Source: Sipunculus nudus (Eukaryota > Annelida > Sipuncula > Golfingiida > Sipunculidae). Taken from it: DNA of 64,000 nt. The notes under the pieces are model-generated. The model was not told the DNA's origin and did no database searches. It saw only the letters and a program-made list of their open reading frames with translations. The stretch spans positions 36,251,229 through 36,315,228 of the forward strand of contig CM049314.1 in the NCBI GenBank assembly GCA_026874595.1. Reading direction: 5' to 3'. Positions 26,111 to 50,115 of this stretch are shown here, piece by piece. Within the stretch, counting starts at the first letter, position 1. Each line of letters begins with the position of its first letter. The translations under genes were made by a program, and so were the position numbers.

Positions 26111-26370
26111 ACATGGGCAGATCAAAGACTTGGGTTTAATTTAATATTTGGTGTTAGAAAAGTGGTTCTCGAGGCAGATTTTAACCTCCGCTTTCTAATC
26201 TGCAGTCCAGATGCTTTTGATCATTTTTTTACAGAAAAAAATTATGAACTATGAGTATATATGTTGCACTGCACTTTTTTCATTTCTTTTTACACAACTA
26301 TATTTAGTGTACACCCAAGAAAACAAGAGCACTGCCAGAATGCAAAGTACTGCCATTGTATGTCTTGTGA

Positions 26371-28785: not shown

Positions 28786-28789
28786 TTTG

Positions 28790-29720: not shown

Positions 29721-29731
29721 TATATAAAATA

Positions 29732-31266
29732 AACTAGATGTGTCGGAACGACACGATTGCCCTCGCCTGGGGCAAATTAGAAACATTTGTAAAATTTTGA
29801 AAAATTGTTTAAGTTCAGGAGGTGTCGTATGGTCAAAAGTAGGTCAACAAGGGCAAAATGCAAACTCGATCTGTAACGGGTCATTATCAAGCAACACACC
29901 AAAAATCATGCCAGTATATGCAAGCATTGTGAAAAAAAGTCCATACATGCGCATTTTCCATAAAAATTTCTGTCTTTCATGAAATTTTCTATGTTTAGGA
30001 GCCGTAAAACAATCAAAAGTAGGTCAACCGGGACAAAACGCAACTCGATCTGTAACTGTCATTATCTGCCCACACATAAAAAATCAGGGTGGTATCTGCA
30101 GGCATTGAGGAAAAAAAGTCAGTAAATATGCATTTGTTATGAAAATTTCTATTTTTCATGAAACTTTCTATGTTCAGGAGCAGTCAAATGGTCAAAAGTA
30201 GGTCAACTGGGACAAAACAAGAACTCGATCTGTAACTGGTCATTATCTGCCTACACACCAAAAATCATGCCCGTATCTGCAGGCACTGCAAAAAAAAGTC
30301 CATACATGTGCACTTTTTTATGAAATTTTCTATGTTAGAGCACCGTCAAATGGTCAAAAGTAGGTCAACTGGGACAAAACGTGAACTTGATCTGTAACTG
30401 GTCATTATCTGCCGACACACCAAAAATCAGGCCAATATCTGCAGGTATTGCGAAGAAAAGTCTGTACAAGTGTATTTGTCATGAAAATTTATATTTTACA
30501 TGAAACTTTCTATGTTCAGGAGCCGTAAAACAATCAAAAGTAGGTCAACTGGGACAGAACGCGAACTCTATCTGTAACTGGTCTAAATCTGCCCACACAC
30601 CAAAAATCAGGCCAATATCTGCAGGCATTGCAAAAAAAGGCCGTACATGTGTATTTGTCATGAAATTTCATATTTTTCATGAAATTTTCTATGTTCAGGA
30701 GCCGTAAAACAGTCAAAAGTCGGTCAACCGGGAAGAAACACGAACTCGATCTGTAACTGGTCTATATCTGCCCACACAAAAAATCAGGCCAATATCTGCA
30801 GGCATTGCGAAATAAAAGTCCGTACATGTGTATTTGTCATGAAAATTTCTATTTTTCATGAAATTTTCTAAGTTTAAGAGCCGTAAAACAGTCAAAAGTA
30901 GGTCAACTGGGACAAAACGCGAACTCGATCTGTAACTGGTCATTATCTGCCTACACACCAAAAATCAGACCAATATCTGCAGGCATTGCGAAAAAAAAGT
31001 CCGTACATGTGTATTTGTCATGAAATTTCTATTTTTCATGAAATTTTCTAAGTTTAGGAGCCGTAAAACGGTCAAAATTAGGTCAACCGGGACGAAATGC
31101 GAACTCCATCTGAAACTGTTCAATATCTGCCCACACACCTAAAATCAGGCCAATATCTGCAGGCATTGCGGAAAAAAGTCTGTACAACTGTTTGATTTCG
31201 GAAGGACAGAAGGACGGACATGGGTAACACTATATGCCCCGGCCACTTTGTGGCGGGGGCATAAAA
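29732..31266 (+). mobile_element. Helentron-like element, copy 1, with eight 180-bp monomers
   Basis: It starts at ACTAGATGTGTCGGAACGAC with a small GC-rich hairpin (TTGCCC...GGGGCAA). A tandem core follows in which AGGTCAAC recurs at 29841, 30021, 30200, 30362, 30542, 30721, 30900 and 31080 (steps 180, 179, 162, 180, 179, 179, 180). A GGACAGAAGGACGGACA stretch leads to the terminal stem-loop TATGCCCCGGCCAC/GTGGCGGGGGCATA (about 31232-31263) and an A-rich tail. No helicase or Rep coding sequence is present, so the element is non-autonomous. The minus-strand open frames 30534-31398 read through monomers and are not genes. A second copy lies at 48616-50115. Confidence 0.75.
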
Positions 31267-32570
31267 AATATGATTTTGAAATGAGGCACATGCTGGTTTT
31301 GTGTGGAAATAAATATAAGCTGTATTATGAGTTGTTAATGTTAAGCTTATGTATGATTTTGATAGTTTCTTTGGAGACAGGGAAGAGATTGATTTCATTT
31401 ATTTTATTAACAAATGGAGTGCCACTGTCATACAGATTTTGACTTGGCCATATAACTGATAAGCAGCACATATAAGATAAAGAGTTTAACTATTTATTAA
31501 AATTTAATAAAAAATATTGTGCCAAATATAATTTTTATTAAAAATAATAAGAGAATCATATGATTTTTTTAATAAAATATAACTGAAATGATTATTAAAA
31601 TAATATTGTAGAATATATTCAGGAATGCATTCATGAATACATTTTGAAAGTATTTGCACTGGTATTCAAATACTTTCATTTTTACCTGAATTCCCATTCT
31701 TATGCAAGAAATTTTATAATGGAGTACATATTCATATTCATATACATTTGCCAAGTATTCGCACCATGTCTGATATTTATTCAGTTTTAGCCAAACAATG
31801 ATGTTGAGAATCAAGAATAAAAACAAAGGACCCATGGGTCACGACAACCAGCTTAAGTTTGAAATTTTTGCAAATGCAAAATATGAAAAATATTCTATTG
31901 AAATGTTTTTTATTTATATAAGCATATGAGAAGCTAAGAGAAAAGGGCCCTCCTAGTTGGTTATAGTAAAGTTCTCAATATATGATTGCAAACTAATACT
32001 CTGACAAGACTGTCATGAAGAAAAACAGTAAAAGTTTTGAGATACTGTGATGCATATGAAAAATTTGCAGATGGACAGGCAAGTGGACAGAATGGACTAA
32101 TACCTTCATTTCACTTTCAAGGGAATAATGCATTTAAGTTTATATATAACAACATGGCATCTACAAAATTATTCCTTGAATCCCTATTAAAAAGTTTTGC
32201 ACATTGGAGTTTTCAGTACATGCTTAATTTTATTCACCGAAATAAAAACATCTTTTCATATAAAGTATACACTGTTGGTTGAATGAGGGACAAACAATAT
32301 CATTATGCTAATTACAATCTCAGCTATAATTAATTACTGGAATTAATAGTCAATTTCACACCTGGTGAAGTTTTACTCTTCTGAAGTAAAGCATTACTTA
32401 TCTGATGAACATCCACACTTTCATAGCAATACATCACTTTGTGGACACAATTAAATGTGCACTTCAATCATTGTAACCCTGGTGGTACAATACAAAATCT
32501 AAAATGTAGCATGTCCAAGAATAAAATAAAATACAGAAAATTATAACATTCATCTAGTTTATGCACCAGC
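31267..32570. other. AT-rich stretch with a short boundary-type repeat fragment
   Basis: Very AT-rich. 'acaaaggacccatgggtcacgacaaccagct' at about 31824-31854 is an isolated copy of the AACAAGGGACCCATGGGTCAC boundary seen at 29687, 39192 and 63985. Its GACCCATGGGTC is a 12-bp palindrome. Open frames here (31248-31442, 31569-31835, 32037-32282) are chance. Confidence 0.45.
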
Positions 32571-32573
32571 GGT

Positions 32574-32595
32574 GGGGGGGGGGGGGGGGGGGGGG
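32574..32595. repeat. G22 homopolymer
   Basis: A long poly-G run follows ACCAGCGGT. It gives the proline run in the minus-strand open frame 32468-32866, which I reject as a gene. It is a potential G-quadruplex and likely a sequencing or assembly trouble spot. Confidence 0.9.
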
Positions 32596-32767
32596 AGTGC
32601 AGGGCAGAGGGGAAGCCTGCTAGTAGTGGCCAAGCTGGGCCAAGGCAAGCTGCCTGGGGTGGATTACATAATGCAAGTGAAGGCTGTACTACTTGTTGGG
32701 CCAGATGTAAACAACACTTGACATGGTGTATGAAAACTTGAATAAAAGCTACTCTTTTCAAACAATT

Positions 32768-33431
32768 TCTTTGAAATTTCAGATTTAAAAAGATTACATC
32801 CTTATGCATATATGCTGTGAAAATAAAATCAACAGTACTTACAGGGAAAAAACGTGCCACTGCCAAATTTGGACAAAATTTAAGGTATTGATTTTTTATT
32901 TATGCTAATAACTTGAACAATTTGCAAAATTCAGATCAAATTTTGGGTAAACAATTGAATTTTGATTAAATAAAATTATATTCCTGAAAAAAAGTCTCCA
33001 GCTTCAGCAATTCTCATGTTAAGTGAGCAAATATATTTCCTGATTTTTAAAAAATTGCATTATATTTGGGCCTATAACTTCAAAATAATACCCAATACTG
33101 ACCTAATTTTTGGTATGTGCACAGAAAATGTATGGAAGAATATAAATACTAAATCTGATCAAAAACAGATCAGTGGTTTTGATATTAGGCAGCCTTGAAG
33201 TGTAACAATGGCTTTTTTATGGAAAACGGAGGTTTTTCCTTACTATCTCGAAGGAACGAGGTTCTAATGACCCAATTTTTGGTATGTTGGAGATTTTGGG
33301 GACATCTAATGGTATGCAGAATTTTGGATTCGTAGGTCCAACAGTTTTAAAATGTGCCCTGTTAACGGCCGGACGGATGACGGACAAAGGACCACAACTA
33401 TAGCTCAGATGACTTATAGTCAGCTGAGCTA
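32768..33431 (+). mobile_element. 0.66-kb dispersed element, copy 1, with 3' stem-loop
   Basis: Colinear with 44308-44970. Shared landmarks include 'aatttcagatttaaaaa', 'ttatgctaataactt', 'gatcagtggttttgatat', 'ggaggtttttcctta' and 'attttggattcgtaggtc'. It ends with GGCCGGACGGATGACGGACAAAGG and a terminal stem-loop TAGCTCAGATGACT/AGTCAGCTGAGCTA at 33401-33431 (one mismatch in 14), then AAAAA. No credible open frame. The design is Helentron/HINE-like. Confidence 0.7.
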
Positions 33432-33610
33432 AAAATGTGGGTCCTGTTACCTTGACCTTTGATCTCATGACCCCAAAATCAATAAGGTTCTTGCTTTAGT
33501 GATGGGCCAAATATATCTGAAGTTTGAGATCCATATATCAATCCAAACTGGAGTTATTGTCCAGAATCGAATGTATGGATGGTTGGATGGACATGGACGG
33601 GGTGATTACT
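33432..33610 (-). repeat. Fragment of the TGACCTTGACC tandem family
   Basis: Directly after the stem-loop end of the preceding element there is 'atgtgggtcctgttaccttgacctttgatct', then 'gaccccaaaatc' and 'atccaaactggagttattgtc', the same order as at 29390-29530. It ends in 'gatggttggatggacatggacgg'. The abrupt junction suggests that one element inserted next to or into the other. Confidence 0.65.
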
Positions 33611-34452
33611 TTTGGGCACCTGGTTATTCAAGCGGGGCCCTAATTAACACATCTTGCAACTGTGTCACCATAGTGAAGAAAACCTTAATCATATCAGAGT
33701 TTTAAAGACTTAAAGAAACCCCAGAAAGTTATATGTAGGCACCAAGGCAAGAAACTGGTCTCCGATTAAGGAAATCATGCAGCTTCCTGATGTACTGTAG
33801 ATCACGGGTGGCAGAGATACATTTGTCAATTTTCAGGAAATGCTAGTCTTCCCTTGTTCTTGCTTAAACACAGACACCTATTTTACCACTAATAAAGAGC
33901 CATATCTATTGGATCACACATTTTAGCTTTAGTCCTCGGCTAGACAGGAGACACAGGATGTCAGACCTATATCAAATTAGTCTCTTGGGTAGAAACTGGC
34001 GAATTAAAAACAGGGCTCCTACCAGGCTCATGAAAAAATATAGGAATCGTATAAGACTTGACACAAAAATATAGGAGTGTTCAATCTAAAATATAGGAAA
34101 ACTACAAGTTTTATTACACAATTGTGGTTAGTATAGTAAATTTATATGGCTATATCTATCCTTGAAGCAGCTCTGTAAGGTTTAACTGGCTTAGATGGCT
34201 GCATTTGTATCACTGCATCAATTCTATGGACATGCAGTTTCACAAAAGAGTTGCATGTCTTCAGTACCAATAAGTTTATATAACAATAATTACATGTAAC
34301 AATAACCATTATACTTGAAAAAAATGTAGAATATAGGAGATTACAGTCTAAATGCAGGAAAATTCAAAATACAGGAGGCAATTTTTATCATAAATAAATG
34401 TAGGAAATGAAGGAGTCAGGGTTTAGGGTTAGGGAGCTAGCCCGGACCTGGA
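33611..34452. repeat. Stretch with recurrent ATATAGGA phrases
   Basis: 'atataggaa', 'atataggag', 'atacaggagg' and 'tgtaggaaa' recur at least seven times between 34039 and 34410. It starts after CAGGGCTCCTACCAGGCTC (about 34012) and ends near AGGAGTCAGGGTTTAGGGTTAGGG. CAGGG could be a hAT-like end, but I find no matching right terminus. The TTTAGGGTTAGGG at 34421-34434 is too short to be called telomeric. Confidence 0.4.
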
Positions 34453-34460
34453 TCTATAAC

Positions 34461-35245
34461 CAGGGTTGGGGCCATGTAAAAGTGAAAGTACCTAGGTACA
34501 GGTACAGGTACTTGTTAATTGGCCAGGTACAGGTACAGATACAGGTACTTTAGAATGTACCTAGGTACAGGTACATTTATTTTAGGATCACTTCTAAGAC
34601 GTTTTTACGGATAATAATAGCTGCATAAATTCATGTATATGCAAGACTTGCAAGTTAACATGCCCTTTTCTGTCAAACAATATTGAAGTCATTTGCTAAA
34701 GTATATTTTACTCAAACTTATCATCTGTATGGCACCATACATTCACAAACATGATGTGCACTTGTATTAAAAGTCCATTAAGTGCACCAAGTAGATACCA
34801 TACATTCACAAACATGATATTCAAGTCTCATGAAAGTCCATGAAGTACACCAAGTACAGTATGACACAATACTTCACAAACATGATATTTGTCTACTAAA
34901 AGTGCATTAAGTGAACTCAGTACTACAGTATAACACCATCCATTCACAAACATGATATTCAAGTGTAAGTGTACTGAAAGTCCATTAAGTCATTCAATTC
35001 ATGAGCAATTTATCAAAATGATGGCTTACTGATTATTTTACACTACAGGTAACCAAATTAAATTCTGAAAGAAAAAACTGAAAATATGAAAATGTATCTG
35101 GAGTACCTTGTACCAGGTACAGGTACTTTAGTTCCAGGTACAGGTACAGGTACAAGGTACTTCCTACTCATAACCTACAGGTACAGGTACTCTGAAATGT
35201 GTACCTAGGTACAGGTACAGGTACAAGTACCTGGCCCCAACCCTG
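34461..35245. mobile_element. Non-autonomous hAT transposon with intact target duplication
   Basis: The element begins CAGGGTTGGGGCCA and ends TGGCCCCAACCCTG, a perfect 14-bp terminal inverted repeat. It is flanked by the identical 8-bp sequence TCTATAAC at 34453-34460 and 35246-35253. An 8-bp target duplication with CAGGG...CCCTG ends defines the hAT superfamily. Inside each end are many GGTACAGGTAC words (34487-34572 and 35101-35230), probably subterminal transposase-binding repeats. The middle carries a four-copy tandem repeat. At 785 bp it has no transposase gene. Perfect TIRs and duplication suggest fairly recent mobility. Confidence 0.93.
34730..34992. repeat. Four-copy tandem repeat inside the hAT element, unit 63-69 bp
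   Basis: TTCACAAACATGAT recurs at 34742, 34805, 34873 and 34943. Each is followed by a variable AAGT...(T)GAAAGTCCATTAAGT segment and CACCAAGTA-like sequence. The units are diverged from each other. Confidence 0.85.
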
Positions 35246-35253
35246 TCTATAAC

Positions 35254-35640
35254 TGTAGTGAACATTCACTATTATTTTTCTATTTTATTAATAATAATTT
35301 TAAAATTGTGAGGTTCGATCCACACTATGTAAAAGTAAACTGCCAAATTCAGCTTGTGTTGAGAAAGTATTTACCAATATTTATCCATGACAGTGCATGT
35401 ATCTCATAATGTTTTGAAAAGGAAAACTGACAATGAAAATGTTTTTTGTGTCCGAGTACTCAACGAAATGCTTCAATACTCTGAAATGATGCAGTAATTA
35501 AGAAGTGTGAATAATAGAGTTTATGAACACAATCTTATTTATACCAGTAAATACTGACACAACATCAGTTAACATCTGGGCAGTGACACTTCAGTTGATG
35601 TGCTCTAGCTGGTTCATATTAATTTCTCTGAGAAACAGTG
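35254..35640. other. Single-copy AT-rich stretch
   Basis: AGGTTCGATCC near 35311 resembles a tRNA B-box, but no cloverleaf can be drawn around it. Nothing else recognised. Confidence 0.4.
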
Positions 35641-36260
35641 AATCATTATGTTAACACTGACAGCTCTGAAAAAAAATGGTTCATTGCTGATACTGAAAAC
35701 AAGTGGACTGCTATGCTAAGTTGAATGTCCTTGACTCAATATTTTCCCAATTTGACAGCTGCGCAGCTTGTCCTCTATAAATGAGAGGGGAACCAGTCTA
35801 TGATATTTATAGCTGGGGTGATGAGGTGCACTTTAGCTCAAAACATTTCTCGACTTCTCATGTTAATGAGACTGTAAACTCCACAAATAGCCATCAAGAT
35901 AAATCAGTGTGGATGACTTATTTCCTTTTACACTGCACCTGTGAAAACGGCAATTATCAGTGATTTCAATTTTGTTTATTATCACTTTCCTCAAAGATTC
36001 TCGGAAAAGGTCAAAACACTAAGTAAACCCGGTGCAGGCTGTTGACTCATTATCCTCTAGCAGAGCTATTTCTCAAGAGGTCAAAGAAGAACGGTTTCTT
36101 TGCGAGTTTAAATTGACTTAACAAGCCCCTGACCATGACAATTATCCCACTGAGTAGGCTTGTTTTGCTCTTGACGGAAATTATTTGTGCCCCTCAAAAT
36201 GTACAGCATTTCTTCTTGCGCTACTGGCTTTTCTTTTCCAGCATGTTTTTTAAACGATCT
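35641..36260. promoter_or_regulatory. Candidate conserved non-coding block
   Basis: About 600 bp of complex single-copy sequence. It includes CTATAAATGAGAGGG (35774) and ATATTTATAGC (35806), a homeodomain/Fox-like region CAATTTTGTTTATTATCAC (35967-35985), and AP-1-like TGACTCAT at 36043-36050. All frames are broken apart from a 60-codon plus-strand open frame at 35781-35963 with no known domain. The texture matches developmental enhancers; this is inference. Confidence 0.3.
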
Positions 36261-36960
36261 GTTCTCAAGCTGTGGTAAAATGTAAATTCATCTTCTTCTA
36301 GCATACAAAATATAATCACAATCAATAAGGTTGCCTAGCTCACTGGCATCTTCTAAGCTTTATTTTCCCTGTTAAATTTCTTTTCCTTTAACTCTATTTC
36401 ACTGCACAATCAATCATGCACTTATTTATACTCCACAATAACTTCCTGAATACAGTGCCATGTCTTATAAACTTAATCACTTATCATAAACATGCACACT
36501 TTTTCATAATTCTCTGACAGCAGTATGCTATGACATACAGACCTACATATCCTCGATTCCAAAACAAATACAATGTAAAATGTTGTAAATGATAATTTTG
36601 ATAAAACACTGCATGATAACATCTGATCTTAATGTCAACACATGAAAGTTAACATAATAAAATATTCATGTAGAAAGTGAAGATCCAAATTAATTTTTGT
36701 ATAGATCTGAATATAAGACTTGACCGATCTGGACAATTTTGTATTGGTGGATGTATGTGCTCTAATGAGTGCCCTCAATATATATTTATTCTTTGATTAG
36801 TATTTATCTCAATCATGCAGGGGAATGTTAACTGCCAACTTACTTATTGCCTTTACTAGTTGAAGAATTATAAACCAAATATCAAATAGAAATAAGAAAT
36901 TTTACGGCAAGGCTGGAAGATTTTCATCCATCATCATGCAAAATCATATCACTGGCATTC
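36261..36960. other. AT-rich stretch, nothing recognised
   Basis: No gene or repeat family seen. Confidence 0.45.
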
Positions 36961-37460
36961 TCTTCACTAAAAATTTGATTCACAAAAAATCTCTATTCTA
37001 TTCATTCACAGTAGAGAGTTTACATAATGCTTTACCAGGCTATAAAGTTGTCCATGCTTGTGCAGGGAGTCATGTTTTTAAATGATGAATGTTAAAAGTG
37101 CTTTAACTCTTGGCGTGTGGAACAGACATAAGCAGATACCTTAAATATATCCCTTGCGTTCTTCATGTTTAAGCACGGACAAATCTGCCGAGATATGCGG
37201 AAAGGCAGATGGTGGCTGCGTGATTACCTAGCCAGTGATGTGATTACACTGACAGGAACAGGTGCTTGTACGGAATTTTATGGTACTCTTGTGACAAAGT
37301 TTTCCATCAGAATGCAAAAAGTTACTACATTATCTTCTGTCGCTGCAAGCTCAATTGAACTTATTCTTGCGCCAAAGTGCAGTAAATGTCATTGCTGGAT
37401 CTATGAATGTTCTATACACAGGTTTTATCTGGTATTGTTTGCAAAGTGACAGATGAAATC
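36961..37460. promoter_or_regulatory. Candidate conserved non-coding block or unrecognised exon
   Basis: This is complex sequence with raised GC between 37090 and 37400. A plus-strand open frame at 37165-37449 (94 codons) has several cysteines but no pattern I recognise. It is not bounded by convincing splice sites, so I favour non-coding. Confidence 0.25.
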
Positions 37461-39185
37461 ATCTAATTTTTATCTTGTGAGATGGCGAAGAGGTAATTTC
37501 TGTTTGAACTAGAAATCTGCAAATCCAAGGAATTCACTTAATCAGTCCATGTTCTCAGGTTAATTCATGTATAAGTGACTGTACATTTGTGAATAAATTT
37601 CTAGAATGTTCATGAATCCAGGTCATGGGCCGGATCAACACTTTAAATTGAAAAAATTTTTTCCTTAGCTGTTACGCGAAATGTCCTGAAAATTTAATAA
37701 GATTCTGCTAATGCCTGTGTGAGTGATGTTGTGAAAACGCACACACACACACATACAACCAGATACACTAACAGCCTAGGATAACTGCATACTATTCTGG
37801 CAGAGGCAATGAATGATGACAAGGGTTTAAAGATATGTCAAAGATAAAGAAAAGCTAGAAGAGATCCATAGGAACATAAGATATTGAGATAGAAAGAGTT
37901 TAAAGATTAGAAAATATGTTGATAATGTAAACTATCTGATAGAATATCTAGATCAGCCATCAGTAGACACTGAAATATAGAAAGTATAAGAAACTGCAAA
38001 ACTAGTTCAACCAAACTCAGCAGGGTATAATTTGAGATTTATATGCATACTAGTATATTCAACCATGTAATGTGTGAAGATCTCAATTGTCCTTTGTTAT
38101 CTCTATATCTTTTGATGTTTTGCTTCTCATTCATAGTTTTTAAGGATACATGTCACTGATTCCGGCTCCAGATACCTTGGTTCCTCTGACACAGAGCTCT
38201 TGATACGTTTTTTTGTTGGTACTAAGCCACATACTGCTGGTAATACACACCTTTCATCTTGTATTATCTGTCTATAGCAGGTCAAGATCAGGTTCCTATG
38301 ATGGAGCACTGACAATGGATAAAGCATGGTATGATATAAACCTGATGCACAAAGAAAGGGAGCCAGGTTTTTTTATCAATGAATCCTGAATGTCACAATA
38401 GACAGTTACTTATGATTGTCTTTGTGACATTTAAGGCTCCTGTATTGTTTCAATCCTCTGCCTTTTGATATATGACATTCACAAATTTCATTTACAAGAG
38501 ACATGTCATATATTTTTGAACAATTCCAATGGTATTTTTAATAGTGTAATTCAAGGTAACACAACACTTTGCTCAGATATCTGAGATGATGTGACAAACT
38601 AGAGTGTCTAGCTATAGACTAATACTGTAATACTATTTATAGTCTATCATTTTGAATATTGTGAATGAATTATACATTAATTGATAATAAATGGTAAAAT
38701 TATTACAAAACTTGTGAATATTTTTTTATGTTTGACTAGAATCTGAGCAGTTAGAAATATAGGAATTTGGAACAGTAAAAAAGTTGTAACTTAAAGAGCC
38801 AGTGTATTTTAATTTGAAAAACAAATTTTTGGTCTCTGAATGGAGATGAACAGTTTTTTTGTTTGAGTAAGTAATTTAAAGTCAAGTCAACAGCTGTTGT
38901 TGACAACGTGACTCAACGACTCAACTGGATCCCCACAGTCCTTACCGTAAATAATTCAACACCTATAAATTAAAGGCGGTAAAAGCTCTCTATGCTTGCT
39001 TCAGTCAAAAATCTTTTGTGTCCAAGTCATACAGTCAGGAAGCATGATTAAGTCACTCTACATGTTACTAAAAAATGAATTTAATCCATTATGACAATTA
39101 TAAAGTCAAAACCAAGAACACTGTTGGTTTAAGTTTGAGACAAGGCAGTGTTACCCTACACTGAATATAGATAAAATCAAGGAGG
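37461..39185. other. AT-rich stretch, nothing recognised
   Basis: Contains a short (CA)n at 37738-37752 and otherwise plain AT-rich DNA. The minus-strand open frame 38127-38327 has no domain. Confidence 0.45.
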
Positions 39186-39345
39186 AAAAGAACAAGGGAC
39201 CCATGGGTCACTGTGCTCAGCTGAAGTTGACCTTGAAAGTAAAAACAAGATAACCAGAGGTCACGCGCTTGCCGGAAATGGAAATGATACAGACAGATAG
39301 ACAGAGAGTGCATGTAGAAACAGTCATATTAATGAGCAACATTGT
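39186..39345 (+). mobile_element. Short Helentron-like fragment
   Basis: It opens with AACAAGGGACCCATGGGTCACTG and TGCTCAGCTGAAG (the boundary also seen at 29687 and 31824). It then has TTGACCTTGA and a GACAGATAGACAGAGAG microsatellite (about 39291-39308). No core tandem repeats are present. It is probably a short or internally deleted relative of the larger elements. Confidence 0.5.
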
Positions 39346-39394
39346 GGGGGCAGCAGAAACGGATAATATGTTTATTTATGCATGCTGACCTTTA

Positions 39395-40600
39395 ACAGCT
39401 GCATATCTTTCTAGTGTAAAAGGGACCAAGTTCAAATTTTTTTCATGAAATCCCGTTAATCTTGTTTGACAAGAAGCAGTGAGACGTTTTCAGGTTTGTC
39501 ATGTCAAGCTGGCCAAATGATATGAAATGCCGAAAATTAGACCTGTCTAGCTATAAAAGCCGCTGAGTTATAAGCATTTGCATGAAATCTCGTGTTTTCT
39601 CGTTTGACGGGAAATGGTGCGAGCTTTGGCGAGATTTCCACTTTTGTCATGTCAGGTTTGTCAAATATTACAAAATGCCGGAAACTAGACCCGTCTAGCT
39701 GCAAAAGTCGCCGTGTTATCAGCATTTACGTGAAATCATGTTTTTTTCTCGATTGACGAGATATAGTACGAGATTTGGCAAGACGAGCAGTTTTATTATG
39801 TCAAGACGGCCAAACGTTACGAAATGGCGAAAACTAGATCCGTCTAGGTGTAAAAGTCGCCGAGTTATAAGCATTTCCGTGTACTCTCGTGTTTTCTCGT
39901 TTGACGAGATATGGTGCAGGATTTGGCCAGTCTTGTAGATTTGTCATATCAAACTCTCTAAATGTTATGAAATGGCGAAAACTACATCTGTCTAGCTGTA
40001 AAAGTCGCCGAGTTATTAGCATGTCTGTGAAATCTCCTTTTTTATCGTTTGACGAGATATGGTGCGAGATTTGGCCAGTCTTGCAGGTTTGTCATGTCAA
40101 GCCGTCCAAATGTTAATGAATGCCAAAAACTAGACCTGTCTAGCCGTGAAAGTCGCCGACTTATATGCATTTCTGTGAAATCTCGTTTTGCCACATTTGA
40201 CCAGATATAGTGCGAGATTTCGCCAAGTATCGCAGTTTTACTATGTCAAGTTGGCCAAATGTTACAAAATGCCAAAAACTAGACCTGAGTAGCTGTAAAA
40301 GTCGCCTAGTTATAAGCATTTCCATTATATCTCATTTTTTTCTCGCTTGACGAGATATGGTGCGAGATTTGGCCTGATTTCTTTTCTGGCGTGTCAAGCT
40401 GGTCATATGTTATGAAATGCCGAAAACTAGACCTGTGTAGCTGTCAAAGTCGCCGAGTTATAAGCATTTCTGTGAAATCTCGTTTTTTCTCGTTTGACGG
40501 TAAACCGAGCGAAATTTGACGAGACTTGCAATTGAATGACTTAGAACCAAGGGGAAGCAGCCTTATACAAAAAACTAGACCCTTGAAACATAAATATTAA
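39395..40600 (+). repeat. Regular 148-bp tandem array, at least seven units
   Basis: The landmark (A)ACTAGACCTGTCTAG is found with its GTCTAG (or GAGTAG/GTGTAG variant) at 39545, 39693, 39842, 39990, 40138, 40287 and 40435. The spacings are 148, 149, 148, 148, 149 and 148. Each unit also holds AAAAGTCGCCGAGTTATAAGCATTT-like, TCTCGTTTTTTCTCGTTTGACGAGATATGGTGCGAGATTTGGC-like and CAAATGTTAYGAAATGC-like blocks. Degenerate edge units lie near 39400 and 40572. Because 148 is not a multiple of three, the open frames at 39537-40116 are artefacts. It is the likely tandem core of the Helentron/pearl-like element that follows. Confidence 0.9.
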
Positions 40601-42211
40601 CCGAGATAGAAGCCAAAAACTGCATATTTTCAGATCGTCAAGTTTAACCCACAAATTTGGTAACCATGGTAACGGCAGCACATAGCTACATGTGCGGAGG
40701 AATTAGCCAATGTTCCTAGTTTAAGATACAACGATAAAAATTGTGCCATGTTTAAAATTATTTTATATATTGCAGAAAAATGATATGTTACAGTGTTTCA
40801 GGTACCACGCCCCCGGTGGCTATTTCCGAAAAATGAAAAAACATGTTCGAGATAATGCAGAACAACAGAAAATATGTCAGTTTCAGAACCTCAGCTGTAA
40901 AACTGCAACCTCTAAATCGTATTCCATGAAATCTCGAAAAGTCTCATGTGACGACAAATGACACGAGATTTTGCGAGACTTTGCATTAATTTAGCACAGA
41001 GCGTATAAAATGCTACACAATGCAAAAAACTAGAGCTCTCTAACTCTAGTCTGGTAATGACAGCTCTAGCCGTTTCTGAGATTTTAATTTTAGTTTGCTT
41101 TTTTGGACAGATGACTAAGTTCAACCTCCTGTTCAATTTCCAAACTGAAACCATTCGAACAAACTTGAGATAGATTGTTCCAGAGATCATTTCTTAGCAA
41201 TATTGGACAATTTGGCTGGACAGTTTCGCAGAAGAAGATTTTAAAGCTTTTTTAGCTTTTTCCCTTTAAAATCTCAGTAAATGCAGACAGCCAAAAAATA
41301 AACAAAATCCGATAGAGCTTTTCAGATGACTGTTTATTTACCAAAAAAATTGGTGATGCTTGTTCCTGACGTTTTTGAGATAGCTATGGTTAACCTACAG
41401 ACGACGGAGGAAGCTGCACCATAGCATAAGCTCACTGGTTCGCTAATAATCTGTTTCGAGATATAACTGTAAGACATAAGATTTAATAGTTTAAAAAAGA
41501 TTATTTCAAAACTGTGTCCTGTAGAATTCTATTAGTGAGACGCAAGAACCAACAAGCAGGCGAATTTGAGGACAACTGACAAACAAACAGACATACTGAC
41601 AAAGGGACACTAGATGAAGACAAGATGACTTAACAAGGTTATGGGGAAGACTCAGAGGAAGAAAATAAGCTATAGTTTATGTAATTGAGGTTTCTAGTTT
41701 TGAAGATATGGCCAAATAATGATATATTGGGGATGTTCGACCACAGCACCATCTAGTGGACATATCCTGAAGATGATGAATGCGTTTTGTGATATTAGTG
41801 AATGGCATGAGATGTAATCGTTTCAAAAGGATTCCTCCAAATATCTGGCTTGTTGATTGCTATATGTGAGATGCAAGAACCAGCAAGTAGGCGAATTTGA
41901 AGATAATTGACAAACAGACGAACATACTGACAAAGTAACACAAGATGGACACCAGATGACGTTACCATGTTTTGCAGAAGGCCAAGAGAAAGAAAAGAAG
42001 CTAAAATTTGTGTAATATAGGTTTAATCTTACGGAAATATGTCCAAAAACTGATTTGTTTAGATGGGTCTAGTGCAGCGCCCGCTAGCAGACATATCCGG
42101 GAAAATGAAAAAGAACTTTTGAGATTAGTGTAAAAGATAAGATGAAGGAACAAACATACGCGGATCACGAACATACTTGCCGAAAATCGAAGATTTCCGG
42201 CAAGCAATAAA
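40601..42211 (+). mobile_element. Pearl/Helentron-like element body and 3' end, copy A
   Basis: This region continues the 148-bp array with diverged units (ACTAGAGCTCTC at about 41030; ACGAGATTTTGCGAGACTTTGC near 40969). It has a block GTAACCATGGTAACGGCAGC...GGTACCACGCCCCCGGTGGC at 40660-40836 and an ACAAACAGACATACTGACAAAG microsatellite at 41580-41602. A second microsatellite near 41919 and a terminal stem-loop CTTGCCGAAAATC/GATTTCCGGCAAG at 42176-42204 follow, then AATAAAG. Two internal phrases, 'gacgcaagaaccaacaagcaggcgaatttga' (41538) and its near copy at 41872, mark a 334-bp internal duplication. Confidence 0.65.
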
Positions 42212-42214
42212 GTT

Positions 42215-42450
42215 GTGACTGTGCCTCCAACATGTATGATAATAGATGGGGCTCGGAGAGGCCGTCACGGACCGCTGCACACGCCGGCCGCCCACCGTAA
42301 GGACCCTGCCGCCACTTGCGGCGACGGCACGTGTCTTCGTGGTATGGCGAAAAACGGCGCGAGATTTGACGAGACTAACAATGTGACCCCTGAATGTGAC
42401 TGCGAGTGTCAGCCGCTATCCAGCGCTGCAAACCATGTGTCTGTAGCGTA
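42215..42450. other. GC-rich insert between element copies
   Basis: 42230-42440 is the most GC- and CpG-rich stretch of the window, for example around 42280-42335 (CACGCCGGCCGCCCACC, GCGGCGACGGCACG). It permits a plus-strand open frame of 78 codons (42215-42451) with a cysteine-rich end. I do not recognise the product. It may be a CpG-rich repeat piece, since CGAGATTTGACGAGACT near 42359 belongs to the 148-bp family. Confidence 0.35.
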
Positions 42451-43767
42451 AAAAAAAAAATGACAGAATTACAGGCATTTCTTTGAATGGTCCCGTGTTC
42501 CCGTTCCACGAGAAACGGTGCGAGATATGACGAGACTTGCGATTGAATGACTAAGAACTAGACGGATGCTGTCTAACGCCGACAACCAGACCTTTCTATG
42601 GCAAATATCAACAGAGACAGAAGCAGGTAAACTTCGTATTTCCAAGTTGTCACGTTTTACCCAAAAATTTGGTAACCATGATAACAGCAGCACAAAGCTA
42701 CATGTGCAGAGGAATAAGCCAATGTTCCTAGTTTAAGATACAACGATAAAAATTGTGCCATGTTTAAAATTATTTTAGATATTGCAGAAAAATGATATGT
42801 TACAGTGTTTCAGGTACCACGCCCCCTGGTGGCTATTTCCAAAAAATGAAAAACTGATTTCGAGATAATTATAAATAACACAAAATATATCAATTTCAAA
42901 GCCATTGTTAAAAAAATGCAACCTGTAGGTCATATTTAATGAAATCTCGAAGACTCTCGTTTGACGAGAAACGGTGCGAGATTTTGCAAGATTTTTTATT
43001 GGATCACCGAGAACTCACCAGGGGCTACAAGTTGCAAAAAAATTGACCTCTCCAGCATAAAAACTGACAGAGTTAGAAGCTGAAAACTGCATACTTTCAA
43101 AATTCAAAAGTTTTACCCCAAAAATAGAGAAATCTGGCAATAGCGCACTTTGGCACCTATGCGCAAAAATAAGCCCATGGACCCCAGTTGAAGGTGCTGT
43201 GATGGAAATGGCCCAATGTTTAATAGTTCTGGAGGTATAGCACCAAAACAAATTTTCATGTTTTTTCATCTGCAACGCCCCCTGGCGGCCATTTCCAAAA
43301 TCTGAAAAAACAATTTCGAGATATTCTTGTGTTACATAAAATATCTCAGAATCAGTACGATTGCTGCAAATTTGAAAAATATCACGAAATTCCATGATTT
43401 CTCCCCAAAATTGCGTAACCATGGTAACAGCAAATTTAAGTAAGCTACATGTCAAAAGAAAGGCCAGGTGATGACGAAAAAAATGAGCTATTGCAGAAGT
43501 GGATAAGCCTATTTATGGCGAAGTTATAGTGCAAAAACCGTTAACCATACCTGTCGTGACCTTGACCCTTGACCTTGGAGCAATGTTGACCAAAAACAAT
43601 AGGGCACCTAGAAATCGGTTTGTCAATCAAGCCTGTAAGTTTCAAGTTGATTGATGCAAAAGTGTGACCTGGAGAGTCGTGACAAACAAACAGACAAACA
43701 GACAAACAGACATACGCAACTGACGAACATGCTTGCGAAAATCGAAGATTTCCGGCAAGCAATAATA
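42451..43767 (+). mobile_element. Pearl/Helentron-like element, copy B
   Basis: The block GTAACCATGATAACAGCAGC...GGTACCACGCCCCCTGGTGGC (42672-42833) matches copy A, displaced by 2012 bp, with few differences. 148-family phrases (TCTCGTTTGACGAGAAACGGTGCGAG near 42953) follow. A CTTGACCCTTGACCTTGG half-site group lies at 43561-43578, and a (ACAAACAG)n microsatellite at 43680-43712. The terminal stem-loop GCTTGCGAAAATC/GATTTCCGGCAAGC is at 43731-43760, followed by AATAA. The minus-strand open frame 43015-43455 (146 codons) lies inside and is not credible as a gene. Confidence 0.65.
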
Positions 43768-44307
43768 TCGAATGGAAATAAAGTCTAAGAGGAAAAGGTA
43801 ATATAGGCCATGGCTGGTTGACATGATTGGTTTGTATTGATGTGTAAGAAATTGTTGCAAATAATATTTTGTGACCAAAACATGCATTTCCTAATGTTAA
43901 AATTGAAGCAGGTGATGCAGTTTGTTAACATAAGATGTATATTATAACCATGATCACTGGTTGACTTTTTGATAAATTGTTGACAATCCAGTAGTTTACA
44001 CATTTGTTAAATTGGATCTGTTTTTTTTTAATATATATTATTAGATATATGTATTTTTTTATATTATTAAATCTATACAGTTGAAATATAACTAATGTCC
44101 CCAGTCCACAGGTGCAAGGACTTGGGGTATGAGAATTACTGTACACCTGTCACAGGAGGGGATCTCCCCCAGTGACTGTAGCAAAACAGGAACCCTGGCA
44201 TAGCTGACTTCCATTGACCAGGAGTAGGCGGCCTGCATATGGATAAACCAAGAAACTACAATTGAGCCTAAATAAAAAATTCAATAACTAGCCTAATTTT
44301 CAAGCTT
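43768..44307. other. AT-rich stretch with a small hairpin
   Basis: CCCCAGTCC...GGACTTGGGG around 44100-44128 forms a short stem. A TA-rich tract lies at 44029-44060. No gene recognised. Confidence 0.4.
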
Positions 44308-44975
44308 TCATTTTCAAATTTCAGATTTAAAAAAATTAAATACTTATGTTTGCATGCTGTGAAAATTAATTCAACATGCCATGGTCAAAGATGGGCAAAA
44401 TTTAAGGTACTGATTTTATTTTTATGCTAATAACTTAAAAAAATTACAAAGTTTGGATCTAATTTTGGGTATACAAATGAACCTTAATTAAACAAAGTTA
44501 TATACTTGGGAAAAAAACCTCTAGCTTCAAAAATGTTCATGTTTAGTGAGTAAATATTTTTCCTGATTTTTTACAAAGTGCATTATTTCCAGGCTCATAA
44601 CTTTGAGAAATTACACTCAACAAACTTAATTTCTGGCATGTATATAGGAAATATATCAGAGAATACTTATTGTAAATACTGAGGAAAACAGATCAGTGGT
44701 TTTGATATAAGGCAGTCCTGAAGTGTGATAATTGGATTTTAATTAAAATTTGAGGTTTTTCCTTAATATCTCAAAGGAACGATGTCGCAGTGACCCAGTT
44801 TTTGGTTTGGTAAGAGATCTTGGGGACATCTAACAGTATGCCAAATTTTGGATTCGTAGGTCTAACGGTTTCAAAACGTGCCAGTTTAACAGACGGACGG
44901 ACGGACAGACAGACAGCTGACAGACAAAGGACCACAACTATAGCTCAGATGACTTATAGTCCGCTGAGCGAAAAA
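44308..44975 (+). mobile_element. 0.66-kb dispersed element, copy 2
   Basis: Colinear with 32768-33431 throughout, same orientation, with scattered substitutions and small indels. It ends in a clean GACGGACGGACGGACAGACA microsatellite (about 44893-44922). The terminal stem-loop TAGCTCAGATGACT/AGTCCGCTGAGCG is at 44941-44970, then AAAAA. The microsatellite is longer than in copy 1, and one arm of the hairpin has diverged. Confidence 0.75.
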
Positions 44976-45980
44976 TGGAGGATGAAAATTAACATGTACC
45001 CAAGAATCTTTTACTGATGGGTGTCAATTTCTATTTGGAAGTGAACATTCATCAGTGAGTGTTACTTTTAAAGTGCAAAATTTAAAAAAAAATGTAGGTG
45101 CATTGTGGGTAAATGTCTGTTTTTTTACTGGTGCTTCAGTAAGTGAACATTTCTCAGTGGGTGCTGTTTGTAAGGACGGCATTCATCACTCGGACTCTGG
45201 AGAATCCAGCTGGTGAACCGGATCATTTACTGCTGTGCCGGTTCCACAATTACCCTCAACTCAAGATGATTTTTCATCACTGCGTGCTGTTCTGCTGACG
45301 CTTTCTAAACAATTTGCACACTCTCCCAAGAGCTAAGAAGGTATGGAGAGTGAAAAAGATGTTAAAAAGAGCGGGTAAAATAAAGTCTTTAGCGGCAAAG
45401 GTCCGGCTGTCAGAAGATAAAATGTCTGCTCTCTCTGATTTATACCTATCTCTATGACTGTGTTCACTAGGTACAGATACCAACAGAGATACAGGAATAG
45501 TCCTGACTGAAAAAAATGTCTGCGCTCTGCTCCATGATACCTACCTCCATATATATATATTTACACATACCTATGCAATATTAAAAACCAGGTGATATAT
45601 GCCATGAAGGGTCAATACTCTTCAGTTTTTGCATTTAAGCTTCTGAAAAACAAGAGCATGCATACAAAAGGACCTAAATCTTTATTGCAAAATAACTAAG
45701 GGATTAAATTAGTTAAAGATAATATTTTAATCCAGCCAGCATCATTATGAATCCAAGCATACAGCCTGCTGATTTCTCCTCTTTGATTCCTAATCCTGTG
45801 GACATAAAATGCACACAGAACATTGATCAATCTCTGACAATTCAGATTTCTGAATTCATAAATTTCTACAAATATTGTGTTCATAAAAGAAATTAACAAA
45901 TGAGACATAAATCCCTGCAAGAGGATTAGCCTGATAAAAATGACAAGTGTGAATGTAATTTGTTTGCAATGGCCTGTTAT
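44976..45980. other. Single-copy stretch, nothing recognised
   Basis: The open frame at 45277-45483 (minus, 68 codons) lies in slightly higher-GC DNA but carries no domain I know. A short repeated phrase GATAYCAACAGAGATA.CAGG / CTGCTCT lies near 45425-45530. No repeat family otherwise. Confidence 0.4.
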
Positions 45981-46570
45981 TTTATTAGGCACCTGCCAGC
46001 AAATAACCAATACTGCCGTGTCTCTTATCTAGATCAATGCTGATCCCTCCAGTTTGAAGTCCATTAAAATCAGTAACTCGTGACATTCTGAGTGGCCTAG
46101 TCCTGAAGTGTGGGAGGAACTTTCCGATTACCTCCGCAAACTCTAACACCGAAGAGCGTCTCTGAGGACTAATATGAAACGAACCATTTCTTATTACCAT
46201 AAGTACGCTTCACGAGTGGGATATTGACCAAGTATAAGGCCAGGCAAGTCAGATTGATTCAAAGTCCCAGAATGCCTCACCGAAATACTGGCACTGAATC
46301 GTAGGCTTGAGTACAGGTTTGGATCATCATCGCTAGACCCTGCGATCATTTGGGATACTAAATGAAGTGGTCTACAGGGGGTTCCTTCCCATTTCACCAA
46401 TACAACACCCGCTTTATTATCCCCATTGGGAACACAAGTGCTTATTGGCTGAGCTTGTTTCGGTTTGTGTCATCAACATCAAGGGGAACCATTGTAAATG
46501 CCCCTATTATCGGGATGTAAGTTCATGACCCGAGATCTTCTGACAAGAGTTTACCAGTTCATCAGGATAA
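45981..46570. promoter_or_regulatory. Candidate conserved non-coding block or unrecognised coding exon
   Basis: About 0.55 kb of complex, non-repetitive sequence with raised GC and CpG, sharply distinct from AT-rich flanks. Two minus-strand open frames abut and overlap in different frames (46194-46400 and 45985-46200). Together they leave the minus strand unusually open, but neither product is recognisable and a frame change would be needed. I favour a regulatory block. Confidence 0.3.
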
Positions 46571-47380
46571 CAGTATTATTTCATAACTTCCTTTAATGCT
46601 CTGGTTTTCCAGCATTTTTATAAAATTTATACTCATATAACTGAATTTAATAACCAAGTATAAACAGTATTTTCTTGTTCTTAAGGGATATATACTTAAG
46701 GGATATATAATTTTGATATATAGTTCTTTGGATCACCAATGTTCAAAAGTTTACGTAACATGTTAAAACAGAAAAATTTTTCTTTGACTTAATATTGACT
46801 ATGCAAGCACAAACTAATTACTAACTGATAGTAGCTAAAAGTTTTTAAGTTTAAATTTGATGAATACATGTGCAGAAATCATTAATTATCATGATTCTTT
46901 TTTTGAAGTGTAAAATCTGTTGATATTTTGTTTCAATCAAATTAAAACCAGCATTTTTGTAGTCATCTGTTTCCAAGTGGATGTATGTAACTTGGTAGAA
47001 AATCAATACTTTATGTTGCAATTCTGATATTTCATTAATCTTTAACAGCAACATAATACTTTTTTCTTGGTAATAACATAACAAAAATGCATAAGGTGTT
47101 AGTAAATTAAGCGCTAGAAAACCAGAGCTTTGGTTAGAATGAAATAATGTTTAATCAATCAAGAAACAAAAGATGTTTTGTCATTTGTAGAATTTTCCAA
47201 GTTTACCACCAGCACAGTTAAAAAGTTCCTCTTATATGCAGATATATATTTTATGAGTTTCTATTATTTTTAAATAATGACTGGATAATTACAGTAGGTC
47301 ATGTGGAGAAGCATTTGAAGCAAAAGTACCTTGTGCTACATCTCATGTTACTCGTTAATTAACCACAATCATCGCATGAT
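46571..47380. other. AT-rich stretch, nothing recognised
   Basis: Contains a small direct duplication of AAGGGATATATA (about 46683 and 46698). No gene seen. Confidence 0.45.
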
Positions 47381-47640
47381 CATGGGTTAGGGATGCATGA
47401 TGAGTAATTACTTCAGTTTGACCTTTAATGATGAAAGCATCATTTCTGCTGAACTTGAAAGGGCTGCCTGCGTTTGTCAGCAGACATGGGCGATTCTCTT
47501 TGAGGCAGTCTCTGAATTATTGACACGCAAACAATGGATGCTGCTGTCATTTGGAAACGAAATTCCCTCATGTTTGACGAAGCAAACAATATAACAGTAC
47601 TGGAGTGGCTACAATTTGCTGATGGATACCTTTGATGCAT
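47381..47640. promoter_or_regulatory. Candidate cis-regulatory block
   Basis: A complex, moderately GC-rich block with open frames on both strands (47397-47594 plus, 47440-47640 minus) and no recognisable product. 'tttgaccttt' and 'gatgagtaattac' (homeodomain-like) are visible. Function is inferred from texture only. Confidence 0.22.
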
Positions 47641-48612
47641 GTGTTGTTATTTCCAACTCGCTAACATGATAGTCATTCAATAGTTTTTTTCAGAAAAAAT
47701 ACATCACTGCTCTGCCCACAGTACATTAGTTTACCCTGATCTGACATACCCAGCCAGCTGTAATATAACTTCTAAGAGAATCTGGAAGAGTCTGAGAATG
47801 AAAATCAAAGGTCTGTAAAAGGGATCTTTGGTCTTATCATTGATTTTAGTCTTAAGATGTTTATTTTTAGTTCTACAATTAGGAAGGATTATATATATTA
47901 ATAACATATTAATTCTAATTATTTAATCCCTTTCTTTGAACAGCAACATATTTCTTGACAATAATATATTCAAAGCCTTGTTTTGAGTGTTTAAAGCTTT
48001 TTTTAAGGTTTTTTACATCAATACTTTATGATCCAACCCGAAAACCCAAAGCTTTTGTCATATCTTGTGCTCAATTGCCCTCATTCTGAAGACTCATACT
48101 ATTTTTAATCAAAATGATCCTTTGACATAATTAACCCATTGAGTAGTCAACTAATGTTAGGGACAAACAGACTAATTAACCAGACTATTGCCTCTCTCTG
48201 CTGAGATCAGAAGATAACAATAAACCCTTAAGACCAAAAAATATGTTTCTCAGGCATTAATTTCTTAGGTTTGTGAATTTATTATAGGTTTCAATAAAAA
48301 TGTATATGATATCAGGACAACAAGAGAATTTTTTTTTGCATGATAGGTAAAAGTAATACATAATTGAGGGAAATTATATCAAAAGTTACTTATTTTCTTG
48401 AAAGATGTCTGACCACTGCTACCAGCCTGAGTTCAAAAATGATAAACTTCTACTGAAAATATAAATAAAATTTATCTATGCTAAGGGTCAAAATTAATGT
48501 ACCTTAATTATCTTAATTAACTATCAACTCTTCACCAATCAGTCTGACCTTGCCAAATTCTTAATTTTTTAAACTTGGAAACCAGCTGCCAGACAGGAAA
48601 GAAATAAGGCCA
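47641..48612. other. AT-rich stretch, nothing recognised
   Basis: No exon, RNA gene or repeat family recognised. Confidence 0.45.
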
Positions 48613-48615
48613 AAA

Positions 48616-50115
48616 ACTAGATGTGTTGGAATGACACAAATGCCCCGCCTGGGGCAAATTAGAAACATTTGTTAAATTCTGTAAAATTTTTTAAGTTCAG
48701 GAGGTGTCATATGGTCAAAGGTAGGTCAACAAGGGCAAAATGCAAACTCGATCTGTAACCGGTCATTATCAAGCAACACACCAAAAATCAGGCCAGTATC
48801 TGCAGGCATTGTGAAAAAAAGTCCATACATGTGCATTTTTCATAAAAATTTCTGTCTTTCATGAAATTTTCTATGTTCAGGATCTGTCATATGGTCAAAA
48901 AATGGTCAACTTTGACGAAACGCGAACTCGATCTGTAAGTGGTCAGTATGCGCCCACAGACCAAACATTAGGCCAGTATCTGTAAGCATTGCATTGCGAA
49001 ACTATAATATTAGCAAAAGCTGATAATCAGTGATAAATTTAAATTGGAGAGGTATGTACCATGTTTCATAACAATCCACCAAATGGTTCCTGAGATATAA
49101 GCTTCTGAGTGTTTTTGTATAATCAGCTCTCAAACAAAGAAAAATAGGTCAAGGTCACCTATCTTTGCACTTGACCAAGATTTTGTTGATATACATCTTT
49201 ACTGATGAAATAAAATTCTAATGGTGAATGCTTTTAGGGATATCCCGCTCACAAGGCCATAATTGAAAAATCCGATAAAAATTGATTAAAAAATCAGAAA
49301 TCACAGGTGGCGCCACCAAAATTGTGCAGCACATACTGACTATCAGTCCTAATGATCATAGTAAGTTTTGTGAAAATCCACACAATGGTTCCTGAGATAT
49401 GAGCTTCTGAGTGTTTTTTCTATAATCAGCTCTAAAATGTAGAAAAATGTGGCAAGGTCACCCATCTTCGAACTTGACTGATATTTTGATGATATACATC
49501 TTCACTAATGAAATAAAATTCCAACGGTGAATCCTTTTAGATCGAGATATCCTGCTCACAAGGTGAAAGTTAACAGATGCAGGACGGACAGACTCCGGAC
49601 AGACAGACAGAGGGACAGACGGACAGCTTGGGTGATGACAATAGCCCATCAGCCTACGAGCTGAGGGCTAAAAACGGCTGTACATGTACATTTATCATGA
49701 AAATTTCTATTTTTCATGAAATTTTCTAAGTTTAGGAGCCATAAAACGGTCAAAAGTAGGTAAACTGGGATGAAACGCAAATTAGTTCTGTAACTGGTCA
49801 TTATCTGCCAACACACCAAAAATCAGGCCAATATCTGCAGGCACTGCGAAAAAAGTCCTTACAAGTGTATTTGTCATGAAAATTTTTATTTTTCATGAAA
49901 TTTTCTAAGTTAAGGAGCCGTAAAACAGTCAAAAGTAGGTCAACCGGGACGAAACCTGAACTCGATCTGTAACTGGTCATTATCTGCCCACACACCAAAA
50001 ATCAGGCCAATATCTGCAGGCATTGCGAAAAAAGTCCGTACAACTGTTTGATTTCGGAATGACGGACATGGGTAAAACTATATGCCCCGGCCACTTTGTG
50101 GTGGGGGCATAAAAA
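48616..50115 (+). mobile_element. Helentron-like element, copy 2, interrupted by a nested element
   Basis: The first 270 bp closely match copy 1 at 29732. Monomer landmarks lie at 48723, 48903, 49757 and 49936, so this copy has about four 180-bp monomers rather than eight. The third monomer is split by the insert at 49002-49672. The end (GACGGACATGGG, then TATGCCCCGGCCAC/GTGGTGGGGGCATA at about 50080-50110) matches copy 1. The open frame at 49801-49998 is a monomer artefact. Confidence 0.75.
49002..49672 (+). mobile_element. Nested Helentron-like element with 302-bp tandem units
   Basis: The host monomer is cut after GCATTGCGAAA and resumes at AAACGGCTGTACATG, so the insert sits in the monomer's poly-A stretch. 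The insert holds two units, with GGTTCCTGAGATAT at 49085 and 49387. Each unit contains AGGTCACC or AAGGTCACCCATCTT and GATATACATCTT..ACT.ATGAAATAAAATTC. It ends in a GGACGGACAGACTCCGGACAGACAG microsatellite (49582-49626), the stem-loop TAGCCCATCAGC/GCTGAGGGCTA (49642-49670) and AAAA. Having both junctions defines this element's ends independently of any database. Confidence 0.8.

What the first reader, a model, noticed from the sequence alone, without database searches (positions are those of the whole stretch)
29732..50115. Several unrelated repeat families share one Helentron-like plan
Five families in this window (29732-31266 and 48616-50115; 32768-33431 and 44308-44970; 40601-43767; 49002-49672; 26371-26790) differ in body sequence. 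Each has a GGAC/GACA-type microsatellite just before its right end, and the first four also close with a near-perfect terminal stem-loop and an A-rich tail. Three have tandem cores of 148, 180 and 302 bp. Established knowledge: (GTCY)n microsatellites, tandem cores and 3' hairpins characterise DINE-1, bivalve 'pearl' elements and Helentron-derived HINEs. The hairpin sequences are family-specific, as if several autonomous lineages were active in one genome.
Basis: partly seen in the sequence, partly recalled or inferred. Interest (0 to 1): 0.7.

Follow-up and report, generated by a model that had tools for sequence, protein, structure and literature searches.

The report
Nested non-autonomous Helentron-type (HINE) elements
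This stretch of what is probably an animal genome holds several families of short, gene-less jumping DNA that share one rolling-circle body plan and are partly nested in each other, an arrangement of a kind already described in oysters.

Summary
All lie on the minus strand. The 'right-end hairpin + GGAC microsatellite' is the HINE 5' end (subterminal inverted repeat, its complement, then a GTCY microsatellite). The true 3' ends lie at window-left: a matching subTIR, a short palindrome and a terminal CTTG/CTAG/ATAG before TT. Family A has both ends. Family B's missing 3' end is a GGACCCATGGGTC-type terminus (29687, 31822, 39191). Family C reaches left to 39244, includes the 148-bp array, and has a second, internal 5' end (42175-42205). 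Two nested insertions give empty sites inside the window: the B unit (29689-33431) inside an unreported tandem array, and D inside A. Both sit in A/T runs with no target duplication beyond ambiguous A's. No Rep/helicase was found in the ORFs examined. The plan matches HINE/DINE-1 and oyster Cg_HINE, where unrelated families sharing it are published. No genome is held, so copies could not be collected. D, the fifth family and the new array family fail the two-end subTIR test. The least ordinary point: families A, B and C share one 5' hairpin geometry (14-nt arms, 3-nt loop) despite different sequences. New members of a known kind; low interest.

The parts
29732..31264 (-). Family A copy 1: 5' hairpin 31233-31263, GTCC microsatellite 31204-31219, ~179-bp array 29832-31186, 3' subTIR 29758-29767, 3' palindrome 29740-29754, terminal CTAG
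48615..50112 (-). Family A copy 2, interrupted by D: 5' hairpin 50081-50111; 3' hairpins within 48618-48657
29689..33431 (-). Family B unit 1 inserted in array E: 5' hairpin 33401-33431, GTCC microsatellite 33371-33392, internal 3' terminus F2 at 31822, A1 nested, outer 3' terminus F1 at 29687-29719
39191..44970 (-). Family B unit 2 (pairing of its two ends is inferred): 3' terminus F3 39191-39224 (subTIR GCTCAGCTGA 39215-39224), C nested inside it, body from 43768, 5' hairpin 44942-44970, GTCY microsatellite 44891-44932
39244..43767 (-). Family C composite: 3' end 39244-39279 (subTIR GCTTGCCGGAAAT 39267-39279), 148-bp array 39491-40499, internal 5' end 42175-42205, outer 5' end 43730-43765 with GTCTGTTT microsatellite 43680-43724
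49002..49670 (-). Family D, nested in the A-run of an A2 monomer: 5' hairpin 49642-49670, GTCY microsatellite 49582-49624, two ~302-bp repeats, 3' end ATTATAG|TTT
28811..33643 (-). Family E: ~300-bp tandem array split by B unit 1 (28811-29688, resuming at 33432), with a decayed hairpin-like right end at 33612-33643; no 3' end recognised
26322..26791 (-).

Best explanation
These are old, non-autonomous Helentron-derived interspersed elements (HINEs) of several families with different sequences, all on the minus strand and partly nested. Each was presumably moved by a Rep/helicase made elsewhere: the 5' hairpin (subTIR plus its complement) marks the start, a rolling-circle copy is peeled off, and the 3' subTIR, palindrome and terminal CTTG/CTAG mark the stop; the copy then enters a T-rich site without target duplication. 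Shown here: the anatomy of both ends (A, B, C), the nesting, two empty sites. Inferred: rolling-circle movement, the helper enzyme, and the function of each end.
For: SubTIR test (nine 5' arms x eight 3' modules, E row redone): for six of the eight arms whose family has a candidate 3' module, the best score is with the own family: C 26 and Cin 26 (13/13 exact), B1-F3 20 (10/10), A1 15 (9/10), B2-F3 15, A2 14 (7/7); B1-F1 is 16 (8/8). Geometry scan: after the G+C filter only HINE 5' ends remain. Empty site 1: a sibling array unit reads CTTTTTAAAGATGTGGG where the filled site reads CTTTTTAA[CAAGGG...GAGCT]AAAAATGTGGG. Empty site 2: GCATTGCGAAA[CTATAAT...GGGCT]AAAAACGGCTGT against uninterrupted A monomers. 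At both, the longest duplication touching the ends is 2-3 A's. The same substructures define DINE-1/HINE (PMC4067079, passages) and Cg_HINE (PMC7492417, passages).
Against: D-D and G-G score 10, below cross-family D-F1 15, D-F3 14 and G-F3 14. B1-F2 and B2-F2 also score 10. The highest cross-family score is 16 (E-C), then 15 (D-F1, E-A2), so only C-C, Cin-C and B1-F3 exceed every cross-family cell. No Rep/helicase in the ORFs scanned. Near-end matches of >=5 nt: A-rich in A1 and in the fifth family, and GGAGGA on both sides of B unit 2, offset 6 nt from each end. B bodies between the shared 5' part and the 3' termini are not alignable between units 1 and 2 (score 35, shuffle mean 34.5). The 3' palindrome + CT[AT]GTT motif alone is not above chance.
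Confidence: 0.85

Rival explanations
1. Cut-and-paste MITEs: the terminal hairpins are inverted repeats bound by a DDE transposase.
For: Pearl and other DINE-1-like elements were formerly annotated as MITEs (passages of PMC7492417, and PMC4067079). The window also holds a hAT-like MITE at 34461-35245.
Against: The ends are asymmetric: the inverted repeat is terminal at the 5' end but subterminal, behind a palindrome, at the 3' end. The two empty sites show no TSD, whereas the hAT-like neighbour shows a perfect 8-bp TSD.
Confidence: 0.05
2. SINE-like retroposons with A-rich tails.
For: Short, gene-less, with about 5-6 A's after the right end of A, B and D.
Against: For D the A's are those of the target run seen in uninterrupted sibling monomers. 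The other end is defined too and carries a matching subTIR in A, B and C. No Rfam family at gathering score in the window.
Confidence: 0.03
3. Chance hairpins beside simple repeats in AT-rich DNA.
For: The fifth family and E are weak; the 3' motif alone is not above chance.
Against: Shuffle controls for microsatellite clusters and hairpin geometry, repeated copies, empty sites.
Confidence: 0.02
4. A refinement of the best reading: the B-type 3' ends beside A1 and C are not independent nested insertions but products of 3'-end bypass, in which a rolling-circle copy ran past one 3' end and stopped at the next.
For: The 3' tips of A1 and C lie 45 and 53 nt inside a B-type 3' tip (positions). F2 is an internal 3' terminus of B unit 1, and that unit is flush with array E on both sides. 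Bypass is shown experimentally for a bat Helitron (PMC4778049, abstract and passages).
Against: Two cases only; T-rich stretches near ends are preferred targets anyway. A2 has no B-type terminus immediately outside its 3' end. Insertions next to other Helitrons also make new 3' ends (PMC4778049 passages).
Confidence: 0.25

Closest known systems
Cg_HINE elements of Crassostrea gigas (PMC7492417)
   Same: 5' subTIR + complementary IR + microsatellite (GTCY in several); satDNA-like central array; 3' subTIR + palindrome; T-rich TT targets, no TSD; several elements unrelated in all modules coexist in one genome.
   Different: Sequences could not be compared (supplementary tables not available). There the subTIR and its IR are 1-12 bp apart; here the loop is 3 nt in A, B and C. 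B2, B1, C, A1 and D microsatellites start 5-17 nt after the hairpin here. Nesting as here was not described in the passages I read.
DINE-1 of Drosophila and HINE-Mo of the mite Metaseiulus (PMC4067079)
   Same: SubTIRs, IR or palindromic subTIR at 5', 3' stem-loop, microsatellite or tandem repeats in some; T-rich insertion without target modification.
   Different: Autonomous partners are known there; none seen here.
Pearl elements of bivalves (as described in PMC7492417)
   Same: Short arrays of ~160-bp central repeats; re-categorised as non-autonomous Helentrons.
   Different: No sequence comparison; the original paper was not read.
FoHeli, Helitron2 type, of Fusarium (PMC5148889)
   Same: Asymmetric inverted repeats; 5' hairpin with a 3-nt loop in FoHeli1 and FoHeli2; some copies with multiple 5' termini.
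   Different: Fungal, coding, shorter 5' stems and other 3' tips.

Membership tests
HINE (non-autonomous Helentron) | Complementary subTIRs near both ends | tested here: met
   Met for A1, A2, B1 and B2 (with F3; B1 also with F1), C and Cin; not met for D and the fifth family, nor for B with F2; E has no recognised 3' end
HINE (non-autonomous Helentron) | Inverted repeat or palindromic subTIR at the 5' end | tested here: met
   A1, A2, B1, C, Cin, D folds of -9.8 or better; B2 -7.5; E decayed, fifth family weak
HINE (non-autonomous Helentron) | Palindrome at the 3' end | tested here: met
   A1 GTGTCGGAACGACAC, F3 GACCCATGGGTC; C imperfect; D only TAATATTA; the motif scan by itself is not above chance
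HINE (non-autonomous Helentron) | Insertion in T-rich TT target without TSD | tested here: met
   Two in-window empty sites, B unit 1 and D; A-runs leave 2-3 nt ambiguous; not testable for the other insertions
HINE (non-autonomous Helentron) | Shares its ends with an autonomous Rep/helicase/endonuclease element | not testable with these tools
   No genome held
hAT or other MITE | Terminal inverted repeats with a fixed-length TSD | tested here: not met
   No TSD at the two empty sites

The most novel reading that the evidence does not exclude
Three families with different sequences (A, B, C) keep one 5' hairpin shape: 14-nt arms around a 3-nt loop, 31 nt in all. One Helentron transposase may recognise the shape of the hairpin rather than its sequence and so mobilise unrelated families, instead of each family having its own lineage.
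Probability: 0.15. Interest if true: 0.5.

Novelty: new member of a known kind. Interest (0 to 1): 0.22.

Why it matters
It corrects the orientation and ends of these repeats and shows how nested copies provide empty sites inside a single window. The wider claim, unrelated HINE families sharing a plan, is known in oysters. The shared hairpin geometry offers a cheap test of shape-based end recognition.

Tried and rejected
Genome-wide copies: not possible, no genome is held. Exact-pattern scans of viral contigs with end or array sequences of A, B/F, C, B and E found nothing (five scans, 0 matches). One genome-contig scan with an F-type pattern gave two bacterial contigs (Streptomyces, Beijerinckia), taken as chance. 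blastn of 29689-33640 in phage records: no match. Rfam: no match at gathering score. Pfam: (10 ORFs) gave one match, Toxin_31 at E 0.034, below its cut-off; (six frames of C with stops read as G) gave one, GGR_cat at 0.012, below its cut-off; (113 ORFs) gave 12 families with one member each, best E 0.001 to 0.04, roughly what that many tests give. One of the 12 is Exo_endo_phos at 0.02, the domain type I recall for the Helentron endonuclease; I did not trace which ORF it was. A first strict 5'-end detector found one site inside an A2 monomer and missed the real ends; it was replaced by energy folding and the geometry scan. In one search, even loop sizes gave 60-88 raw hits, nearly all low-G+C repeats removed by the filter; after filtering, loop sizes other than 3 gave 0-3 hits each, several being the same ends in a shifted frame. 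Bodies of the B units: two comparisons exceeded their mononucleotide shuffles (66 vs max 53; 60 vs max 52) and two did not; I judged all to be AT-rich noise. Family E: my first E arm was misplaced; with the right arm, no E-like 3' subTIR stands out in 27500-28811 (score 16, shuffle mean 14.7, max 22). SINE, MITE and chance readings: see the rivals.
Full report
Observation. The outer pieces of A1 and A2 are 87.3% and 89.2% identical, B1 and B2 75.6%. Clusters of three or more GTCN words number 35 on both strands, against a mean of 8.5 and maximum of 16 in 100 dinucleotide shuffles; 6 of the 35 have a fold of -9.5 kcal/mol or better just 5' of them, against 1.7-1.8% of positions overall. Four of these six are element 5' ends (A1, B1, C, D); two are family-A monomers beside A's 3' hairpins. 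A scan for 14-nt arms with at least 12 pairs and a 3-nt loop returned five sites. One was dropped for low G+C; the other four are the 5' ends of A1, A2, B1 and the internal C end. Forty block shuffles gave a mean of 0.25 and a maximum of 3. B2, the outer C end and D are not caught: B2 has 11 pairs, C lacks one base, and D has a 4-nt loop and a bulge.

Orientation. Read on the minus strand, each element begins TTA/TTG or similar, then a subTIR and its complement forming a hairpin, then a GTC-type microsatellite, then the body. That is the left module described for DINE-1 (PMC4067079, passages) and Cg_HINE (PMC7492417, outline, passages and section 8). The 3' ends lie at window-left. A: subTIR GGCGAGGGCA, palindrome GTGTCGTTCCGACAC, then ATCTAG|TTT. 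B (F3): TCAGCTGAGC, GACCCATGGGTC, then CCTTG|TT. C: ATTTCCGGCAAGC, an imperfect palindrome, then ATCTTG|TTT. D ends ATTATAG|TTT. The A, F1 and D tips are fixed independently of the motif, by copy alignment and by the two empty sites. The F2, F3, C and fifth-family tips were placed by the motif itself.

SubTIR test. Nine 5' arms were scored against eight 3' modules (72 cells). The E arm in that table was misplaced; its row was redone. Same-family scores: C-C and Cin-C 26; B1-F3 20; B1-F1 16; A1-A1 15; B2-F3 15; A1-A2 and A2-A2 14; B2-F1 12; A2-A1, B1-F2, B2-F2, D-D and G-G 10. Highest cross-family scores: E-C 16; D-F1 and E-A2 15; B1-D, B2-D, D-F3 and G-F3 14. So C and B1-F3 exceed every cross-family cell; A1, A2 and B2 are best within their own rows but overlap the cross-family range; D, the fifth family and F2 do not pass. 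B and D 5' arms share TCAGCT, so these two may not be wholly unrelated.

Nesting and empty sites. Removing the insert restores a unit that aligns with its siblings across the join. The insert has a B 5' hairpin at one edge and a B-type 3' terminus at the other. D lies in the A-run of an A2 monomer, and its joined flanks align with uninterrupted monomers. For eight intervals tested, suffix/prefix matches at the ends are 0-5 A's; matches of 5 nt or more near the ends are A-rich in A1 and the fifth family, and GGAGGA in B unit 2, 6 nt from both ends. The last tells against a wholly TSD-free picture, in a unit whose end pairing is inferred.

Composite structures. C has a stretch with both ends (39244-42212) abutted by a second stretch that ends in another C 5' end near 43765. 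The two share 62 bp at the tip (88.7%) and about 530 bp inside (80%), but not the DNA between. Multiple 5' termini are known in Fusarium Helitron2 elements (PMC5148889, passages), and tandem whole copies are mentioned for Helitrons in PMC7492417. B unit 1 holds a second 3' terminus, F2 at 31822. The 3' tips of A1 and C lie 45 and 53 nt inside B-type 3' tips (positions). End bypass, nested insertion near ends, or both could explain this; two cases cannot decide.

Coding. No Rep, helicase or convincing endonuclease was found in what was scanned: 10 ORFs, six frames of C and 113 of 243 ORFs of at least 55 aa. An Exo_endo_phos match at E 0.02 in one unnamed member of the 113 was not traced.

Mechanism. 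Most likely: trans-mobilised rolling-circle elements. In bat Helitron experiments a 3' hairpin acts as a terminator that can be bypassed, and circles form (PMC4778049, abstract and passages); by analogy the 3' palindrome would be the stop signal. This is inference; nothing here tests movement.

Known or new. [quoted passage not shown] Paper searches made. In the passages read I saw no statement on a constant 5' hairpin geometry across families, but I did not search for that and supplementary tables were not available. The source organism is not identified; a bivalve is a guess from resemblance.

Noticed in passing
window 34453-35253: A hAT-like non-autonomous element (34461-35245): 14-bp exact terminal inverted repeats CAGGGTTGGGGCCA and a perfect 8-bp target duplication TCTATAAC, with GGTACAGGTAC-rich inner ends.
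   Followed up: partly
window 28811-29688 and 33432-33643: A tandem array of about 300-bp units rich in GTGACCTTGACCTTTGACC, split by B unit 1; its right end looks like a decayed HINE 5' end.
   Followed up: partly
window 26322-50112: All eight elements described (A1, A2, two B units, C, D, E, fifth family) lie on the same strand. Over the whole window, runs of four or more A's outnumber those of T 738 to 586 on the + strand. Chance or target bias.
   Followed up: partly
window 42213-42360: A 63% G+C stretch inside the otherwise AT-rich C element, almost all of it without a match in the other part of C; possibly captured host DNA.
   Followed up: no
window 3410-3965: Two ~190-bp copies, 76% identical, each with ACCTGTRCAGGTGAGTA near its right end.
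   Followed up: no
window 59244-59488: A 136-bp unit repeated 1.8 times.
   Followed up: no
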